A stretch of DNA of 28,021 nt. Source: Methylococcaceae bacterium. GTDB lineage: Bacteria > Pseudomonadota > Gammaproteobacteria > Methylococcales > Methylomonadaceae. The position numbers and the translations under genes were made by a program. Below the pieces are notes generated by a model. That model had not been told where the DNA came from. It did no database searches and worked only from the letters and a program-made list of their open reading frames with translations. Below, one piece after another: positions 792-24,965 of this stretch. The first letter of the stretch is position 1. Every line of letters starts with the position of its first letter. Location of the stretch: assembly GCA_947505055.1 (NCBI GenBank), contig CANNLO010000020.1, positions 1 to 28,021 on the forward strand, read 5' to 3'.

Positions 792-1148
792 CTATTTACC
801 CTTTTGCTCCGACATTTTTTGACCGTGTCTCTCCATCATTTGGCCATAATGCGCCTTCATCAAATCTAATTGCTGCTTTTTTAAAGCTTCTTTTTTGACG
901 GCATCTTTTTCTGCCAGAATCTGATTAGACAGGTCATGCATCTGCAGCATGTGCTCCTGACTACTACGCATCCGCTCACTTTGCTGCTCTTCGGTTATGC
1001 CACTCATCATCCCCATGCCCATACCGTGATGCTGCCCCCCCATTTCTTTCATGGGCTCAGCTAGCTTTTGAGCTTCGGTGGCTGAGACAGTCAGGCTTAT
1101 GGATAACAACGCTACAACAATTAACATTGATTTATATATATTTTTCAT
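792..1148 (-). CDS. small Met/His-rich periplasmic protein
   Basis: 118 residues. A signal peptide occupies 1-23 (KNIYK, then a hydrophobic stretch, then VSA before TEA). The mature part begins with a Met/His/Gly cluster (QHHGMGMGMM, about 39-48), followed by charged, heptad-like helix (about 52-115) rich in Gln, Lys and Met. That layout resembles the small helical Spy/CpxP-type periplasmic chaperones and metal-responsive proteins, but I do not see their duplicated LTxxQ motif clearly (only ITEEQQ at 51-56), so assignment stops at the general class. Met/His clusters often bind Cu(I) or other soft metals; a metal role is inference. An AAAGGTG ribosome-binding site precedes the ATG. Confidence 0.75.
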   Translation of the reverse strand: MKNIYKSMLIVVALLSISLTVSATEAQKLAEPMKEMGGQHHGMGMGMMSGITEEQQSERMRSSQEHMLQMHDLSNQILAEKDAVKKEALKKQQLDLMKAHYGQMMERHGQKMSEQKGK

Positions 1149-1397: not shown

Positions 1398-2108
1398 ATG
1401 TCTAAATTAAATATTCTCGTTGTTGAAGATGAAGACGCCATCAGAGAAATGTTGATGATGGTTCTCGAGCAATCCGGTTTCAGATCAATTGCTGCCGCAG
1501 ACTCGGATGATGCGCAAAAAGCCCTGGACGAGTCTTTACCTGACCTTATCTTACTGGATTGGATGCTCCCTGGCATCAGTGGCGTTGAATGGGCAAGACG
1601 TTTAAAAAAAGATCCTATGTATAGGGAGCTGCCTATTATTTTACTAACGGCCAGAGGCGAAGAAGAAGATAAAGTGAGAGGGCTTGAAATCGGGGCCGAT
1701 GATTATGTCACCAAACCCTTTTCACCCAAAGAATTAGTGGCAAGAATTCGTGCAGTGCTCCGCCGCAGCGGCAAAATAAATGACTTGGCGCAAATTAGCG
1801 TGGGTGACCTGGTTCTTGATACCGAACAACACAGACTCAGTCTGGGCGACAAGCAACTTGAAGTCAGTCCGACCGAATTTCGTTTAATGCAGTTTTTTAT
1901 GACTCATCCAGATAAAGTATTTAATCGCACTCAATTGCTTGATCAGGTTTGGGGAAGAAGCGTATACATCGAAGAACGAACTGTCGATGTGCACATCCGT
2001 AGACTTAGAAAAATCCTGGGTGAACATGGAAGAGAAGATTTGGTTCAAACAGTTAGGGGATTTGGCTACCGGTTTTCAATGTCAGATACCTCGCCCGTCC
2101 TGATATGA
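1398..2108 (+). CDS. phoB: phosphate regulon response regulator PhoB
   Basis: 236 residues (E. coli PhoB is 229). It has an N-terminal receiver domain with the acidic pocket E10/D11, phosphoacceptor D54 (LLDWMLPG), T84 and K106 (TKPF). The C-terminal OmpR/PhoB winged helix (about 135-230) carries the recognition-helix region [12 protein letters not shown] and the final GYRF wing. When phosphorylated by PhoR under phosphate limitation it binds Pho boxes and activates phosphate uptake genes. PhoR follows 87 nt later on the same strand, confirming the pair. No pst or phoU genes lie in the window. No clear ribosome-binding site precedes the ATG. Confidence 0.95.
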
Positions 2109-2195
2109 CAGCAAATATAACCACAACTGAAGTTGTTTCGACTGTCTTTAATAAAGATGCATCGACTGATCAGTTGACCATAAAATTCTAAAATT

Positions 2196-3512
2196 ATGGG
2201 AATTTGGCAAAAAGAACTCATTACCGCTTTGCTACTGCTGTTAGTAGCTGGAATAATTGGCGGCTTGACCGGGCTTTTTTTGCCTCTAGCTTTAGCATTC
2301 ACCCTAGTCCTGTTATTAACCCAGCTATATCAGATTAACCGTTTCGAAAAATGGATACGCACTGGCGGTCGCTCTAACTACCCTAAAACCTCAGGTATTT
2401 GGGAAGAAATCTATTACCATGTTTACCGGATCAAAAAAAACGAGAAAAAGCGTAAAAAGAAACTGGGAAAAATGGTAGATCAATTTCGCCAGTCAACTGA
2501 AGCCTTGCCCGATGCCGCCGTCGTCCTAAGTGCCAATGACGAAATTGAATGGGCGAATAAAGCCGCCAGAGAAGTCTTTGGCCTACAAGCCTCGGATAAA
2601 GGCCAGCGCATTCCCAATCTAATTCGCTTCCCTGAATTTATCCGTTACCTTAGATCGGGAAATTATACCGAAGCCGTCATCTTGCCCTCACCTGTTGATC
2701 ACCGCATCACTTTGGCAGTTCGTATTATCGCCTATGGTGCCGGATTACGTCTGTTATTAGCGCAGGATGTTACTCAGCTTAAAAAAATGGAGCGAATGCG
2801 CAAAGATTTTGTTGCCAATGTCTCACATGAACTCCGAACACCACTGACAGTCCTTAAAGGTTATCTGGAAACATTACAGGACATGGATGATGGCGAATCG
2901 CCGTTATTAACGACTTCGTTTTACCAAATGCGGGGACAAACCGAGCGCATGCAGCATCTGGTTGATGACTTACTGTTGCTGACCCGGCTGGAAACCCAAC
3001 AAAAGAAAACCGAGTGCATAGACATACCCATCCTGTTAACTCAAATTTGCAAGGAAGCAGAAGCGCTAAACGGCAATGCTCCTATAGACACCTCACCAGC
3101 TCTGACAGGTAAGCTTTTTGGCCGGATTGAATTAACGCTTGAAGCAAATACCTGTGTAATTGGTGAGGAACAGGAATTACGCAGTGCATTTACCAATCTA
3201 CTCGGCAATGCGCTCAAATATTCACCGGACGATTCAGTCGTCAAAGTCCGCTGGCACGCCTCCGATGACTTCGTAATTCTGGATGTCGCGGATCATGGCG
3301 AAGGTATCGCTATGGCCGACATATCTCGCGTTACTGAGAGATTTTACCGCTCTGAAGTCAAACGGACCAAGAAAGTGGGTGGCACCGGTCTCGGACTGGC
3401 TATCGTAAAGCATGTCTTAATGCGCCATGATGCAGATTTAAAAATTGCCAGTGAATTGGGCAAAGGCAGCTGCTTCAGTTGCTATTTTCCGCGTAAACGG
3501 ATTTGCAGCTAA
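2196..3512 (+). CDS. phoR: phosphate regulon sensor histidine kinase PhoR
   Basis: 438 residues, close to E. coli PhoR (431). Two adjacent N-terminal membrane helices (about 8-28 and 30-46) have almost no periplasmic loop, as in PhoR, which senses through the Pst/PhoU complex rather than an external ligand. A basic linker (KKNEKKRKKKL, 81-90) precedes a PAS domain (about 95-195). The HisKA domain has phospho-acceptor H211 in VSHELRTPL, and the ATPase domain shows the N box ([10 protein letters not shown]), G1 (DHGEGIA) and G2 (GGTGLGLAI). It phosphorylates PhoB at low phosphate and dephosphorylates it when phosphate is plentiful. The 87-nt phoB-phoR gap holds two small palindromes (2123-2136 and 2165-2174). 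No strong ribosome-binding site is visible. Confidence 0.93.
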   Translation: MGIWQKELITALLLLLVAGIIGGLTGLFLPLALAFTLVLLLTQLYQINRFEKWIRTGGRSNYPKTSGIWEEIYYHVYRIKKNEKKRKKKLGKMVDQFRQSTEALPDAAVVLSANDEIEWANKAAREVFGLQASDKGQRIPNLIRFPEFIRYLRSGNYTEAVILPSPVDHRITLAVRIIAYGAGLRLLLAQDVTQLKKMERMRKDFVANVSHELRTPLTVLKGYLETLQDMDDGESPLLTTSFYQMRGQTERMQHLVDDLLLLTRLETQQKKTECIDIPILLTQICKEAEALNGNAPIDTSPALTGKLFGRIELTLEANTCVIGEEQELRSAFTNLLGNALKYSPDDSVVKVRWHASDDFVILDVADHGEGIAMADISRVTERFYRSEVKRTKKVGGTGLGLAIVKHVLMRHDADLKIASELGKGSCFSCYFPRKRICS

Positions 3513-21434: not shown

Positions 21435-22067
21435 ATGAATCCAAAAAAACGACTGGATATTTTTGATCGTCTGGCTATCGCCACACCTGAGCCGACAACT
21501 GAACTTAACTACAACAGTACTTTTGAATTATTAATAGCAGTGGTTTTATCTGCTCAAGCAACCGATAAAGGGGTTAATAAAGCGACTGCCAAGCTTTTCC
21601 CAATCGCCAATACGCCAAGTGAAATTCTGACATTGGGCGAAACCGGCTTAAAAGAGTACATTAAAACAATTGGTCTTTTTAACAGCAAGGCTGCGCATAT
21701 CATCACTCTATGCAAACAACTGCTAGATACCTTTAACGGCCAAGTGCCGCAGACACGTGAAGAACTTGAAATGCTGGCGGGTGTCGGCAGAAAAACCGCG
21801 AACGTCATATTAAACACTGCTTTTGGACAGCCCACTATTGCCGTAGATACGCATATTTTCAGGGTTGCTAACAGAACAGGTATTGCAACCGGTAAAAATG
21901 TTCTGGAAGTTGAACGAAAACTGGACAAATCAGTGCCAAAAAAACATAAAAAAGATGCCCATCATTTACTGATCCTTCATGGTCGTTATACCTGTATTGC
22001 AAGAAAACCTCGTTGCCTTAGCTGCGTTATACAAGATTTGTGCGATGAAAAAACCAAAAATATCTGA
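21435..22067 (+). CDS. nth: endonuclease III
   Basis: 210 residues (E. coli Nth is 211). It is a bifunctional DNA glycosylase/AP lyase that removes oxidised pyrimidines in base excision repair. The helix-hairpin-helix LAGVGRKTANVI contains catalytic K120, and D138 lies in AVDTHIFRV. The [4Fe-4S] ligands C187, C194, C197 and C203 follow the C-x6-C-x2-C-x5-C pattern exactly. The start MNPKKRLDIFDRL matches the family. It stands alone, divergent from the damaged galE; the 201-nt space between them (21234-21434) has no other gene. A weak A/T hairpin overlaps its stop. Confidence 0.97.
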   Translation: MNPKKRLDIFDRLAIATPEPTTELNYNSTFELLIAVVLSAQATDKGVNKATAKLFPIANTPSEILTLGETGLKEYIKTIGLFNSKAAHIITLCKQLLDTFNGQVPQTREELEMLAGVGRKTANVILNTAFGQPTIAVDTHIFRVANRTGIATGKNVLEVERKLDKSVPKKHKKDAHHLLILHGRYTCIARKPRCLSCVIQDLCDEKTKNI

Positions 22068-22082
22068 TTAATTAGATATTTT
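22057..22082 (+). terminator. A/T hairpin over the nth stop codon
   Basis: AAAATATCT (22057-22065) and AGATATTTT (22074-22082) form a 9-bp, almost wholly A/T stem with an 8-nt loop, ending in TTTT. It is weak thermodynamically, but placed where a terminator is expected. Confidence 0.35.
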
Positions 22083-22267
22083 ACGCGGGGTACGATAAAA
22101 AACCTATACACAGTTTCTGCCGCTCAATGGGTTAATTGTCTTAAGGATATTTATTCTTTATTTTGTTGATTTTGATATGATACCCTCAATTCGATGCGTT
22201 TTTAAGTATCGATTTATCTCTCGGGTTAACTGCCGGGAACGGTTTTTAAAACTTGTATCAATACACT

Positions 22268-22279
22268 GGAGACACCATG
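22268..22279 (+). promoter_or_regulatory. ribosome-binding site fixing the hvfA start
   Basis: GGAG (22268-22271) lies 5 nt before ATG 22277. It selects this start over the in-frame TTG at 22253, and the choice gives a proper signal peptide. The 200-nt region upstream holds CGGGTTAAC (22222-22230) and GGGAAC (22235-22240). The latter resembles the -35 of ECF-sigma promoters, but I see no convincing -10. Confidence 0.65.
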
Positions 22280-22831
22280 AAAAAAAATAATAAAACCCCT
22301 TTAGCTACTGCAATGGGCGCTGCTTTTCTGTCTGCTTTTGCTGCAACTGCGGTTAATGCCGACGTAAATCCTTTCGGTATGACTGAATTATCAACAGGTT
22401 ATATGCAAGTTGCAGCAGCCGATAAAGCTGCTGAAATGGCCTGTGGCGCTGCAATGGGTGGCATGGCCAAACCTAAAACTGCAGAAGGTGCTTGTGCAGG
22501 CAATGTAAAAGCTGAAGGCGCAAAAGCGGCTGATGGCTCCTGCGGCGCAATGATGAAAGATGGAAAAATGAAACCCGGCATGGAAGCAGCTTGTGGCGCC
22601 ATGATGAAAGGCAAAGAAGGCGCTTGTGGTGATATGGGCAAGGGCAAAGAAGGTGCTTGCGGTGCTCAGTGCGGCGAAGGCATGAAAGCCTGTGATTCAG
22701 CAAAAACCAAAGAAGGTGCTTGTGGTGCGCAAATGCAAGGTTGCGGAGAAGGCATGAAAGGTTGTGGCGAAATGATGAAAGGTACAGAAGGTGCATGCGG
22801 CGACAAAATGAAAGCTAAAGACGCCAAGTAA
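22277..22831 (+). CDS. hvfA: HvfA-family Cys-rich secreted RiPP metallophore precursor
   Basis: 184 residues. The signal peptide spans about 1-28 (KKNNK, hydrophobic segment, AVNA before DVNPF). The NPF...LSTGYM segment just after it (31-43) is usual in this family. The rest is low-complexity Gly/Ala/Lys/Met/Glu with 12 cysteines (56, 72, 89, 106, 117, 128, 132, 139, 149, 156, 163, 174). Five lie in EGAC motifs, four of them EGACG, close to the EGKCG motif of Haemophilus HvfA. There HvfB/HvfC turn Cys into oxazolone-thioamide groups that bind copper. Unusually Met-rich as well. Spacing of Cys is regular (17, 17, 11, 11, 11 and then 7, 7). It is first in an operon with hvfB and hvfC, separated from hvfB by a hairpin. 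Confidence 0.85.
   Translation: MKKNNKTPLATAMGAAFLSAFAATAVNADVNPFGMTELSTGYMQVAAADKAAEMACGAAMGGMAKPKTAEGACAGNVKAEGAKAADGSCGAMMKDGKMKPGMEAACGAMMKGKEGACGDMGKGKEGACGAQCGEGMKACDSAKTKEGACGAQMQGCGEGMKGCGEMMKGTEGACGDKMKAKDAK
22607..22672 (+). repeat. two 33-nt tandem units inside hvfA
   Basis: Codons 111-121 and 122-132 both encode KGKEGACG followed by three residues. The DNA is similar but differs at third codon positions, so the protein repeat is being kept by selection rather than being a very recent duplication. Confidence 0.7.
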
Positions 22832-22851
22832 TTTATTTTTCAATCAGGTAG

Positions 22852-22898
22852 CGTGGCAGGCCGACGATAAATGACACTTTTATTGTTAGCCTGACACG
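22852..22898 (+). terminator. hairpin between hvfA and hvfB, possible attenuator
   Basis: CGTGGCAGGC (22852-22861) pairs with GCCTGACACG (22889-22898) at 9 of 10 positions. An inner CGATAAA/TTTATTG stem (22865-22871 with 22879-22885) can form as well. It lies 20 nt after hvfA and 42 nt before hvfB and lacks a strong T-run. A partial terminator or RNA-stabilising stem here would give more precursor than enzyme, which is common in RiPP operons. Confidence 0.5.
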
Positions 22899-22940
22899 AT
22901 CCTACTATTTATTTTGTCTTCATTAATCTAAGGTGTTCAT

Positions 22941-23792
22941 ATGGACACGACCAAACAACTCGTTCACGGCGCCGGCTTGGGTCTGCGGCGGTCTTTTTTA
23001 AGTCAAATTGTAGATACTCCTCCTGAAGGTGTCGGCTTTTATGAAGTTGCGCCCGAAAACTGGATTACACTCGGCGGAAAATATGGCAAACAATTTCGTG
23101 GCATGACCGAGCGTTTCGATTTTATCTGCCATGGCTTATCATTATCCATAGGCAGCACTGATCCTCTAGATGAATTTTTCATTCATGAAATTAAACAGTT
23201 CATGTCCGAACATCAAATCAAGTTTTACAGCGAACATCTAAGTTATTGCAGCAAAGATGGTCATTTATATGATCTAATGCCTATTCCGTTCACCTCTGAA
23301 GCCGTTACCCACGTAGCTAAACGAATCAGACGGGTCCAGGATATTCTCGAACAAAAAATTGCCATAGAAAACGTATCTTATTATGCAGCTCCCGGCCAGG
23401 AGATGGACGAAATTGATTTTTTCAATGCCGTTATCGAAGAAGCCGATTGTGACGTGTTAATAGATATTAATAATATTTACGTAAACAGTGTAAATCATGG
23501 TTATGACGCGGAGGCATTTTTAAAAGCAATGCCCGCGCACCGTATTGCTTATGCCCATATCGCCGGACATTATGTGGCAGCAGAAAATTTTCTGGTCGAT
23601 ACCCACGGTGCTGACGTGCTTGATCCGGTCTGGAAGCTGCTGGGTAAAGCTTACGAACTTTACGGTGTCTTTCCGACGCTTTTAGAACGTGACTTTAATA
23701 TCCCGTCGTTGGATGAATTAATCAAGGAAGTTAACACTATCAGCGCCATTCAAGCCGCCTGGGAATCGCAACATGCGCAACACTCCGCTTGA
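22941..23792 (+). CDS. hvfB: HvfB-family MNIO (DUF692) RiPP maturase
   Basis: 283 residues, a TIM-barrel DUF692 protein. MNIO enzymes use two or three irons and O2 to oxidise cysteines of a peptide substrate. The expected metal ligands are visible: H64 (CHGLSLS), H99 (SEHLSY), E143 (IENVSYY), D175 (DINNIYVN), H206 and H210 (AHIAGH), D220/H222 (DTHG) and E249 (LLERDFNIP). The N-terminal GAGLGLRRSF and FYEVAPENW segments are also typical. AGGTG at 22931-22935 fixes the start. It sits between the Cys-rich precursor and the DUF2063 partner, as in hvfABC and bufABC operons. Cytoplasmic, so modification should precede export of HvfA. Confidence 0.92.
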   Translation: MDTTKQLVHGAGLGLRRSFLSQIVDTPPEGVGFYEVAPENWITLGGKYGKQFRGMTERFDFICHGLSLSIGSTDPLDEFFIHEIKQFMSEHQIKFYSEHLSYCSKDGHLYDLMPIPFTSEAVTHVAKRIRRVQDILEQKIAIENVSYYAAPGQEMDEIDFFNAVIEEADCDVLIDINNIYVNSVNHGYDAEAFLKAMPAHRIAYAHIAGHYVAAENFLVDTHGADVLDPVWKLLGKAYELYGVFPTLLERDFNIPSLDELIKEVNTISAIQAAWESQHAQHSA

Positions 23793-24546
23793 AACCGTGG
23801 TGAAAATCGATTTTAAAGCCAAGCAACAAGAGTTTGCGGCCTATATCAGAGACCCTGATAACCATCCAGCTCCTGTCGATGTTCAGCCACAGCGGATGGC
23901 CATGTATCGTGAACTGTTTTTCAATAATATCGACACCTTTCTAACTGCCAATTTTCCTGTATTACGGGCAATATTGAACGACAGACAATGGTTTGAATTG
24001 GGTCAGGATTTTTTTGCGAATCATGCCTGTGTGTCACCGCATTTTTCAAAAATTCCAGAAGAGTTTCTTAATTATCTGCAAAACGAGCGCGATTGTATAA
24101 CGGATTTCCCATTCATGCTGGAACTGGCTCATTACGAATGGGTAGAAATGGCTTTATCCATCGCCAAAGAAACCGTGCACGCCAATCCTCAGAGTCTGGA
24201 CGAGCTGCAAAACCGGCACATAACATTATCACCACTTGCTTGGCCACTCATCTATCAATATCCCGTCCAACAACTATCGCCAAATTTTTTACCTGAAAAG
24301 GCACCAGATCAACCCACTTTCCTGGTTGTTTATAGAAACCCTGAAGACAATGTTAACTTTATTGAAATAACACCACTTACCTACCGTTTACTACAAATAA
24401 TTCAGGAAAATGGCGAGATTATGACCATAAGCTGCCTAAAGCAGGTTGCTGAAGAATCGAATCATCCCAATCCCCAAATGATAATAACCGGCGGTTTGCA
24501 GATATTAAAAGAATTGGCGGAAAAGACGGTGATTATTCCAGGGTAA
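23773..24546 (+). CDS. hvfC: HvfC-family RiPP maturation protein (DUF2063)
   Basis: 257 residues. The N-terminal DUF2063 domain (about 15-110) carries RMAMYRELFFNNIDTFLTANFPVLRAIL and WFELGQDFFANHAC. A second segment includes LAHYEWVEMAL (near 120) and a C-terminal helix-rich part. In characterised HvfBC and BufBC pairs this protein binds the MNIO enzyme and presents the precursor; it has no catalytic residues of its own that I can see. It overlaps hvfB by 20 nt, indicating coupled translation and a fixed enzyme-partner ratio. GTG codons about eight codons downstream are alternative starts. The DoxX-like fourth gene often found in these operons is absent here. Confidence 0.9.
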   Translation: MRNTPLETVVKIDFKAKQQEFAAYIRDPDNHPAPVDVQPQRMAMYRELFFNNIDTFLTANFPVLRAILNDRQWFELGQDFFANHACVSPHFSKIPEEFLNYLQNERDCITDFPFMLELAHYEWVEMALSIAKETVHANPQSLDELQNRHITLSPLAWPLIYQYPVQQLSPNFLPEKAPDQPTFLVVYRNPEDNVNFIEITPLTYRLLQIIQENGEIMTISCLKQVAEESNHPNPQMIITGGLQILKELAEKTVIIPG

Positions 24547-24965
24547 ATTAAGCAAGATAAGCCAGACCATCTATCCGGTTTGATCTAAAAATTGGGACTG
24601 AACGCTTGGTTGGCTTAACCTCTTGAGTTATCGAAAATACGTGAGGCTAATTTTCGGCTATTTAAAGAGTGGCTTAAATTTAGGCAATCGTCCTTCATTG
24701 AATAAAAAATGCAATTTGAAGTTTTGTTCCCGTTAATTCGTTTTCCTGGATGCTGTCTTCGATGTTAAATATTTTATATACCGATATATCCGTCTAATTG
24801 ATCAGGTAGAGTCACAATTATCAATTTGTGATACCAAGAAAATTCAAAAAGCATCAACGTAAACAATAAATTATATTAATTTTTTTATGATTTAGATCTG
24901 AGATTCAGCTCGATATCTCTTTAAAAAATTTCATTAATATGGGCAAAAAACTGTTCCCAATATAA
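24547..24965. other. 419-nt gene-free region between hvfC and flavin reductase
   Basis: No convincing gene is seen on either strand. Two overlapping hairpins near 24615-24656 could end the hvf transcript: TTAACCTC/GAGGCTAA (24615-24622 with 24643-24650, one mismatch) and CGAAAAT/ATTTTCG (24632-24638 with 24650-24656, perfect). A TCACAA/TTGTGA dyad lies at 24812-24831. The rest is A/T-rich without recognisable structure. Confidence 0.4.

What the first reader, a model, noticed from the sequence alone, without database searches (positions are those of the whole stretch)
22277..24546. HvfABC-type copper-peptide operon with a long, regularly spaced Cys/Met precursor
A secreted Cys-rich precursor, a DUF692/MNIO enzyme with all expected metal ligands, and a DUF2063 partner lie in the order known for hvf and buf operons. 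The core motif here is EGACG rather than the EGKCG of Haemophilus HvfA, and the peptide also holds many Met residues. If the host is a methanotroph, a modified copper-binding peptide beside its own copper uptake systems would be of real interest. The product chemistry (which of 12 Cys are modified) cannot be read from sequence.
Basis: partly seen in the sequence, partly recalled or inferred. Interest (0 to 1): 0.75.

Follow-up and report, generated by a model that had tools for sequence, protein, structure and literature searches.

The report
Methanotroph copper-peptide operon, methionine-rich variant
A methane-eating bacterium carries the known three-gene recipe for a copper-binding modified peptide, but its peptide has swapped the usual lysine beside each cysteine mostly for alanine or serine and filled the gaps with methionine, a variant that is easy to test in the laboratory.

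Summary
Window 22277-24546 encodes hvfABC in a Methylobacter: a 12-Cys precursor with a Sec-type signal, an HvfB-family MNIO (437 bits, cut-off 360) and an HvfC-family partner (305 bits, cut-off 142). The precursor matches no Pfam or NCBIfam model, but has the NPFxxTELSxGYM segment and E-x-x-C-G sites of EGKCG (oxazolin/fontiphorin, "captophorin") precursors. The operon is a known kind; the peptide is a variant. In 75 unique precursors of relatives the residue before Cys is Ala (294 of 670) or Ser (100) more often than Lys (163); in 20 other gammaproteobacterial precursors it is Lys at 147 of 164. The window has Lys before 0 of 12. Met is 11.7% against 5.3%. HvfB keeps the Arg-Arg and Asp-Phe residues of Lys-Cys enzymes in 38 of 38 rows, so the substrate changed, not these enzyme residues. 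The hvfA-hvfB spacer is structured (z <= -2 in 55 of 66). Most likely product: a periplasmic Cu(I)-binding 5-thiooxazole polypeptide with thioether ligands, for copper buffering or sequestration rather than as a secreted chalkophore. Modification, copper binding and copper response are not shown here.

The parts
22150..22175 (+). Upstream element before the -10: ATTCA...ATTCAG-type direct repeat, 11-base period in the relatives (degenerate in the window)
   Evidence: ATTCA-N3-9-TTCAG in 22 of 72 upstream regions, mean 0.24 and maximum 2 in 200 single-base shuffles; the window does not match the strict pattern. In 15 same-genus genomes the 17-base pattern has 7 exact matches, 7 of 7 upstream of hvf; of 34 matches with up to 1 mismatch, 10 are at hvf and 24 elsewhere, against 10 for the reversed control. 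Regulator unknown.
22176..22181 (+). Putative -10 box TATGAT of hvfA
   Evidence: TATGAT/TATCAT in 37 of 72 upstream regions at -150 to -45; transcription start inferred, not shown
22191..22212 (+). Stem-loop at the inferred 5' end of the hvfA mRNA (TCGATGC...GTATCGA)
   Evidence: 29 of 37 anchored regions hold the two arms by pattern; the three variable pairs are standard in 27, 22 and 22 of 29, with swaps such as C-G/T-A/A-T/G-C. RNAalifold on the MAFFT alignment gave no structure; no Rfam match. Suggestive only.
22277..22831 (+). hvfA: precursor, Sec-type signal peptide about residues 1-28 (by eye), NPFGMTELSTGYMQ segment, 12 Cys, 20 Met
   Evidence: no Pfam/NCBIfam match
22649..22801 (+). 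C-terminal 7-Cys module of HvfA (residues 125-175; Cys at 128, 132, 139, 149, 156, 163, 174)
   Evidence: present in 30 of 32 rows of A2 by eye (rows chosen by me from the 120 listed hits); absent or shortened in 6-Cys relatives
22847..22906 (+). Hairpin in the hvfA-hvfB spacer (partial terminator or 3'-end stabiliser, inferred)
   Evidence: window -26.5 kcal/mol, z -2.8 and -3.2; 55 of the 66 spacers of 50-200 bases (of 75 unique precursors) have z <= -2, median -3.56
22941..23792 (+). hvfB: MNIO (DUF692), HvfB family
   Evidence: NF003818 437.4 bits > 360; PF05114 351.6 bits; 3BWW best PDB match, E 1.5e-71; tree; residues
23773..24546 (+). hvfC: DUF2063 + NGO1945_C partner protein, HvfC family (RRE by the family's name)
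   Evidence: NF050145 305.1 bits > 142; PF09836 and PF22106; 3DEE E 2.5e-9

Best explanation
This is an hvfABC (captophorin/oxazolin-type) operon. HvfA is made in excess over the enzymes because a hairpin after hvfA limits or stabilises transcripts (inferred). HvfC (RRE partner) presents the unfolded precursor, with its signal peptide and NPF...GYM segment, to HvfB. HvfB uses a mixed-valent diiron centre to oxidise Cys in E-x-[A/S/K]-C-[G/A] sites to 5-thiooxazole, losing 4 H each (chemistry inferred from the characterised relatives). By FonBC's site rules about 11 of the 12 Cys should be accepted, about -44 Da, with Cys139 (MKACD) the likely exception. The product is exported by Sec to the periplasm, where thiooxazole thiolates, together with the many Met thioethers (a feature of the methanotroph versions), bind Cu(I). 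The role is buffering or sequestration of the copper that these pMMO-bearing cells must take in, not secretion as a chalkophore.
For: Families over curated cut-offs. HvfB placement: 36 of 38 Methylococcales rows in one branch (SH-aLRT 99), BufB-like rows outside. The positions I took as candidate metal ligands (H64, E98, H99, E143, D175, N177, N178, H206, D220, H222, E249) are invariant in 38 of 38 Methylococcales rows, and so are R16/R17/D251/F252, which by position are the specificity and base residues of FonB studied in PMC13097082. FonBC tolerated an EAACGEGACG double variant, and position 5 tolerated Gly/Ala but not charged residues. Conserved site pattern: E at -3 in 549 of 670, G or A at +1 in 637 of 670 Cys. 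An hvfC cluster is present in 80 of 81 loci. Met enrichment: 11.7% against 5.3%; median 11.8% in 34 genomes with PmoB >= 600 bits. Among 14 gene clusters shared by 6 or more of 81 loci I recognised no transporter or receptor (by eye), unlike methanobactin operons (recalled). PmoB in the nearest genome. Structured hvfA-hvfB spacer.
Against: No chemistry, copper binding or expression data for this lineage. Copper protection is disputed even for relatives: Microbulbifer MmrABC was not detected in the proteome with or without copper, and its authors hesitate to assign a protective role (PMC12538549 passages). The AlphaFold model of HvfA is uninformative (mean pLDDT 42.7), so no metal site can be read. 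Not every PmoB carrier has HvfB: five f6 genomes, four of them with PmoB at 590-620 bits, have only matches under the HvfB cut-off, and the two looked at have Buf-like precursors (L171, L172). Met enrichment does not track PmoB perfectly: a PmoB-negative f5 genome has 8.7% Met, and some other gammaproteobacterial precursors are Met-rich too. DoxX (HvfX), part of the Haemophilus operon, was not seen beside hvfABC; the only DoxX match in the nearest genome is 25.3 bits inside a 1235-aa frame. FonBC also modified a Cys-Tyr variant once, so its site rules are not strict.
Confidence: 0.68

Rival explanations
1. Copper acquisition: the modified peptide or fragments of it are released and work as a chalkophore, like methanobactin, feeding pMMO.
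For: Host family carries pMMO; the nearest genome has no second MNIO and so no MbnB; HvfB over the cut-off in 52 of 61 relatives (36 of 37 in family f1) against 48 of 140 in the class.
Against: No exporter, TonB receptor or protease recognised by eye among the clusters shared by 6 or more of 81 loci; the precursor is long and low in complexity rather than a short core; characterised relatives are induced by excess copper rather than starvation (PMC13097082). Families of the order whose PmoB matches score below 500 bits, and other gammaproteobacteria, carry hvfA and hvfB too.
Confidence: 0.1
2. General thiol or oxidative (hypochlorite, formaldehyde, metal) stress protection; copper is incidental. 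In a methanotroph the thiols could also scavenge formaldehyde.
For: Oxidative stress and gold also induce relatives (PMC13097082); no copper response was seen in Microbulbifer (PMC12538549).
Against: Characterised products generally bind Cu (PMC13097082); Met enrichment in the lineage fits Cu(I) better than formaldehyde (inference).
Confidence: 0.15
3. Only some Cys are modified: the Lys-less, 7/10-spaced C-terminal module stays as free thiols or Cu-thiolate clusters, so HvfA is a hybrid of thiooxazole and metallothionein-like parts.
For: The C-terminal module has non-Glu sites (GAQCG, MKACD, MQGCG, MKGCG); in FonBC charged residues after Cys block processing (PMC13097082).
Confidence: 0.3
4. 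Structural low-complexity secreted protein unrelated to HvfB; HvfB/HvfC act on another substrate.
For: No family model matches HvfA.
Against: A precursor cluster lies before hvfB in 73 of 81 loci; signal peptide, NPF...GYM segment and E-x-x-C-G sites are shared with gammaproteobacterial precursors next to their own hvfB.
Confidence: 0.03

Closest known systems
HvfABC / oxazolin of nontypeable Haemophilus influenzae (PMC13419390, abstract and passages read)
   Same: Gene order A-B-C, signal-peptide precursor, HvfB (MNIO) and HvfC (DUF2063/RRE) families, E-G-x-C-G sites
   Different: Haemophilus HvfA has three AEGKCGEGKCG units (6 modified Cys) and a DoxX-like HvfX; here 12 Cys, no Lys before any of them, 20 Met, no hvfX seen
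Fontiphorin FonABC and the captophorin class (PMC13097082; abstract, Results parts 1-3 of 4 and passages read)
   Same: Minimal three-gene operon; MNIO with Arg-Arg and Asp-Phe specificity residues; FonBC accepts Ala at the Lys position
   Different: Native FonA is of the Lys-Cys type; in the main text 'EGACG' has 0 word-start occurrences and appears in what I read only inside the engineered EAACGEGACG variant; the supplement with the motif tables was not seen
Bufferins BufABC (Buf1 DUF2282, Buf2; PMC12452194, abstract, Results parts 1-2 of 4 and passages read)
   Same: MNIO + DUF2063 pair, Sec-exported Cys precursors, copper
   Different: BufB model is below its cut-off here (267 against 310 bits); precursors have 4 or 6 conserved Cys; Arg17 and Phe252 absent in 12 of 12 BufB-like rows
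Methanobactin MbnABC of methanotrophs
   Same: MNIO-made copper peptide in methane oxidisers
   Different: Different MNIO subfamily (53.7 against cut-off 325 bits); short precursor, oxazolone-thioamide product, dedicated transport genes (recalled)
Second hvf operon in 11 of 23 same-genus genomes (L111-L120, L122)
   Same: HvfB and EGKCGEGKCG start of the core
   Different: HvfB about 55-57% identical to the window's, own clade; precursor found in 9 of 11 loci, 99-110 aa, with EGGCS repeats

Membership tests
HvfABC / EGKCG-type captophorin operon | MNIO of the HvfB family | tested here: met
   NF003818 437.4 bits, cut-off 360; tree
HvfABC / EGKCG-type captophorin operon | DUF2063/RRE partner of the HvfC family | tested here: met
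   NF050145 305.1 bits, cut-off 142
HvfABC / EGKCG-type captophorin operon | Signal-peptide precursor just upstream with repeated E-G-x-C-G | tested here: met
   EGACG at 4 of 12 sites, G at +1 in 10 of 12; NPF...GYM segment shared; signal peptide judged by eye
HvfABC / EGKCG-type captophorin operon | Lys before Cys (the Lys-Cys precursor category of PMC13097082) | tested here: not met
   0 of 12 Cys in the window; by this precursor category it is outside, although the enzyme is of that type
HvfABC / EGKCG-type captophorin operon | Enzyme residues Arg-Arg / Asp-Phe of Lys-Cys MNIOs | tested here: met
   R16, R17, D251, F252; 38 of 38 Methylococcales rows; correspondence to FonB Arg15/16/Asp249/Phe250 by position, no direct alignment to FonB
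HvfABC / EGKCG-type captophorin operon | 5-thiooxazole at Cys, Cu(I) binding | not testable with these tools
   needs mass spectrometry/NMR
HvfABC of Haemophilus | DoxX protein HvfX in the operon | tested here: not met
   no + strand ORF of 50 aa or more lies between hvfC and the reverse-strand flavin reductase; no DoxX-like cluster recognised by eye among clusters shared by 6 or more of 81 loci; only a 25-bit match in the nearest genome
Bufferin (BufABC) | BufB equivalog cut-off | tested here: not met
   267.2 against 310 bits
Methanobactin | MbnB equivalog cut-off | tested here: not met
   53.7 against 325 bits

The most novel reading that the evidence does not exclude
In methane oxidisers the captophorin has been remodelled into a mixed-ligand copper store: Lys beside the thiooxazole lost, linkers turned into Met-Met-Lys segments, so that each chain holds many Cu(I) through thiooxazole-thiolate and thioether sites in the periplasm and hands copper to pMMO, filling the place that Csp or methanobactin has in other methanotrophs.
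Probability: 0.2. Interest if true: 0.8.

Novelty: new variant of a known kind. Interest (0 to 1): 0.5.

Why it matters
Methylococcales depend on copper for pMMO, and the nearest genome to this host has no MNIO other than HvfB. A thiooxazole system this widespread in them (HvfB over the cut-off in 36 of 37 genomes of the host's family and 52 of 61 relatives) makes the question of what captophorins do in a cell that wants copper directly testable in named methanotrophs such as Methylobacter tundripaludum, M. marinus and Methylotuvimicrobium buryatense, whose loci are in hand (L070, L059, L083). The natural Lys-to-Ala change with unchanged enzyme specificity residues is also a ready-made test of the published substrate rules.

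Tried and rejected
Tried and led nowhere. (1) AlphaFold of HvfA with a 32-row alignment: mean pLDDT 42.7, pTM 0.18, no fold, so neither the beta-helix reported for an EGKCG protein nor a Csp-like bundle can be tested. (2) Rfam over 22068-24965: no match up to E 1. (3) RNAalifold of the 5' stem-loop region: no consensus structure; I think MAFFT did not hold the 3' arms in register. Arms were then read by pattern, which favours sequences that pair. (4) The ATTCA repeat as a regulon marker (15 genomes): 7 of 7 exact matches are upstream of hvf; with up to 1 mismatch 24 of 34 lie elsewhere, against 10 for the reversed-pattern control. Those 24 were not followed up, and no regulator was found. (5) Literature: ten searches found no paper describing EGKCG-type hvfABC in Methylococcales; a 2021 paper reports six-Cys DUF692/DUF2063 clusters in another methanotrophic order and mentions Methylocapsa (PMC8692599 passages). 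Most subscription papers and all supplements were out of reach, so this is weak evidence of absence.

Rejected: methanobactin and bufferin identity; strictly regular spacing.

Rows dropped; of 110 loci plus the window, 95 gave a precursor and 75 were unique. 12 are named as dropped: 9 real-looking precursors lost to my start-codon window (among them M. buryatense L083) and 3 without the NPF motif. The other 4 had no candidate with 4 or more Cys. The loci overlap in source; of 29 class loci, 20 gave a precursor with at least 4 CG; 9 did not. The class loci are the best-scoring HvfB hits, not a random draw; 66 of 75 had a spacer of 50-200 bases; 49 rows; G036 had no precursor in its stretch, and genomes whose stretch I did not fetch are absent; 37 of the 110 loci plus the window stand for the Methylococcales, chosen by me.
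Full report
What is there. On the + strand lie hvfA (22277-22831, 184 aa), hvfB (22941-23792, 283 aa) and hvfC (23773-24546, 257 aa), the last two overlapping by 20 bases. HvfB passes NCBI's HvfB equivalog model (437.4 bits, cut-off 360) and stays under the BufB (267.2/310) and MbnB (53.7/325) cut-offs; HvfC passes the HvfC model (305.1/142). Pfam gives PF05114 for HvfB and DUF2063 plus NGO1945_C for HvfC. The precursor has no Pfam or NCBIfam match. Best solved relatives are 3BWW (E 1.5e-71) and 3DEE (E 2.5e-9).

Host. The own assembly is not held. The nearest named record is an uncultured Methylobacter contig (L031): HvfB 99% identical, DNA 96% over 6795 bases and 95% over 1953 bases. The nearest held genome, G001, carries PmoB (PF04744) at 641 bits and a single PF05114 protein, the HvfB itself, so no methanobactin MbnB.

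Distribution. Matches to the HvfB model occur in 58 of 61 relatives, 52 of them over the cut-off; in the host's family f1 36 of 37 are over it (one of these, G014, by the second-operon type only). In the class the figures are 89 of 140 and 48 of 140 (G001 and G040 of the host's order are among them). Five f6 genomes of the order, four with PmoB at 590-620 bits, have only matches under the cut-off, so the system is not in every PmoB carrier. In a 90-row tree, 36 of 38 Methylococcales rows form one branch (SH-aLRT 99) holding the window; two rows from other families (L024, L028) fall outside. Twelve rows under the HvfB cut-off, ten of them with a Buf-like precursor of 4, 6 or 7 Cys upstream (L173 and L174 are the exceptions), are apart (quick method, four long branches flagged, all in that group). 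They were not scanned with the BufB model.

The precursor. Signal peptide (to about residue 28, by eye), then NPFGMTELSTGYMQ, then 12 Cys in contexts EMACG, EGACA, DGSCG, EAACG, EGACG, EGACG, GAQCG, MKACD, EGACG, MQGCG, MKGCG, EGACG, at steps 17, 16, 17, 11, 11, 4, 7, 10, 7, 7, 11. In 75 unique precursors (from 95 kept of 111 sequences; see the dropped rows) with 670 Cys, position -3 is Glu in 549, +1 is Gly in 545 and Ala in 92, and -1 is Ala 294, Lys 163, Ser 100. 740 proteins match HvfA at E <= 0.001 in the protein database; 120 are listed, and those listed with an organism name are Methylococcales.

How it differs. In 20 precursors of other gammaproteobacterial families (of 29 loci looked at), -1 is Lys in 147 of 164, the commonest Cys step is 5, Met is 5.3% (median 3.1%) and MM pairs 0.15 per sequence, against 11 and 17 as commonest steps, 11.7% Met (median 11.8%) and 3.21 MM pairs in the Methylococcales set (Mann-Whitney p 2e-8, which ignores relatedness). 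By family within the order (49 rows): f1 Lys at 49 of 281 Cys with median Met 11.8%; f4 16 of 20 with 10.4%; f7 46 of 47 with 1.2%; f8 17 of 17 with 5.3%; f2, f3 and f5 one genome each. PmoB scores 600 bits or more in 29 of 33 f1 and 5 of 6 f4 rows. So Met enrichment is seen in f1 and f4, and the loss of Lys mainly within f1. Exceptions: f5 (no PmoB) has 8.7% Met; G052 of f4 has only short PmoB matches; several f1 precursors keep Lys (G031 8 of 11). The number of independent changes is small, so this is a lineage pattern, not a statistical law.

The enzyme's specificity residues did not change with it. R16, R17, D251 and F252, at the positions that PMC13097082 reports as FonB Arg15, Arg16, Asp249 and Phe250, are present in 38 of 38 Methylococcales rows. 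R17 and F252 are absent from 12 of 12 BufB-like rows. H64, E98, H99, E143, D175, N177, N178, H206, D220, H222 and E249 are invariant in the same 38 rows; I chose these as candidate metal ligands from recall and from the 3BWW alignment. D220 and H222 match in spacing the site-3 residues D242 and H244, whose replacement inactivated HvfB (PMC13419390 passages). FonBC tolerated a double Lys-to-Ala substrate (EAACGEGACG) and Gly or Ala after Cys, failed on charged residues there, yet modified a Cys-Tyr variant once (PMC13097082 Results). From those rules I predict about 11 modified Cys, with Cys139 (MKACD) spared: inference.

Regulation and dosage. Upstream of hvfA the close relatives share a block (..ATTCATTCTTTATTCAG..GATTTTGATATGAT..). 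A strict pattern is found in 22 of 72 upstream regions against 0.24 in single-base shuffles (relatedness not removed; the window has a degenerate form that does not match). In 15 same-genus genomes 7 of 7 exact matches of the 17-base pattern lie upstream of hvf; with up to 1 mismatch 10 of 34 do, and the reversed control gives 10. Just after the -10 a stem-loop is present by pattern in 29 of 37 anchored regions, with some compensatory changes, but RNAalifold did not return it. The hvfA-hvfB spacer folds unusually well in 55 of 66 relatives (z <= -2, median -3.56), in the window at z -2.8; in the spacers printed the sequences differ much. The likely meaning, a partial terminator or transcript stabiliser giving more substrate than enzyme, is inference.

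Neighbours. Within 5 kb of hvfB in 81 loci (ORFs of 80 aa or more) 14 clusters are shared by 6 or more loci: hvfB (80), hvfC (80), a precursor cluster (73), an endonuclease III gene (65; Pfam), a reverse-strand lipoprotein (37; no Pfam match) and nine others that look like housekeeping genes by eye (6-19 loci each). I recognised no DoxX, transporter or copper gene among them. Contig ends shorten some loci. The nearest genome has only a 25.3-bit DoxX match; the four other genomes searched have better ones.

Function. Shown: gene content, families, conservation, motif shift. Inferred: modification to 5-thiooxazole, Sec export, Cu(I) binding, buffering. [quoted passage not shown] I therefore hold copper buffering as most likely, not established.

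Novelty. The operon is a new member of a known class; the Lys-poor, Met-rich precursor of methanotrophs is a new variant. DUF692/DUF2063 clusters with six-Cys precursors were already noted in another methanotrophic order (PMC8692599). I found no description of the present type in Methylococcales in ten searches of the open library, which lacks most subscription papers.

Noticed in passing
L111-L120, L122 (unnamed same-genus genomes): A second hvf operon in 11 of 23 same-genus genomes: HvfB about 55-57% identical to the window's and a separate clade; in 9 of 11 loci a short precursor with EGKCGEGKCG followed by EGGCS repeats was found. Not seen in the nearest genome G001.
   Followed up: partly
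L059 about 1.75 kb after the hvfB start, reverse strand; similar in 37 of 81 loci: A 150-aa lipoprotein-like protein with several Cys and a HDPFDHSHD stretch, no Pfam match, recurs downstream of hvfABC in relatives but not in the window; possibly a metal-linked partner.
   Followed up: partly
window 792-1148 (-): 118-aa secreted-looking His/Met-rich protein with a sub-threshold Metal_resist match (20.3 bits, cut-off 29.2), next to what look like a response regulator and sensor kinase at 1398-3512.
   Followed up: no
window 22847-22906 and relatives' hvfA-hvfB spacers: Structure of the spacer is kept while sequence changes (GGAGGGC...GCCCUCC in L037 and L103, quite different in the window); a possible RNA element, no Rfam match.
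   Followed up: partly
window 21435-22067: nth (endonuclease III) precedes hvfA in 65 of 81 loci, with an rnf-like gene further upstream in 19 (rnf name read by eye, not tested); hvfABC seems to sit after an rnf-nth block.
   Followed up: no
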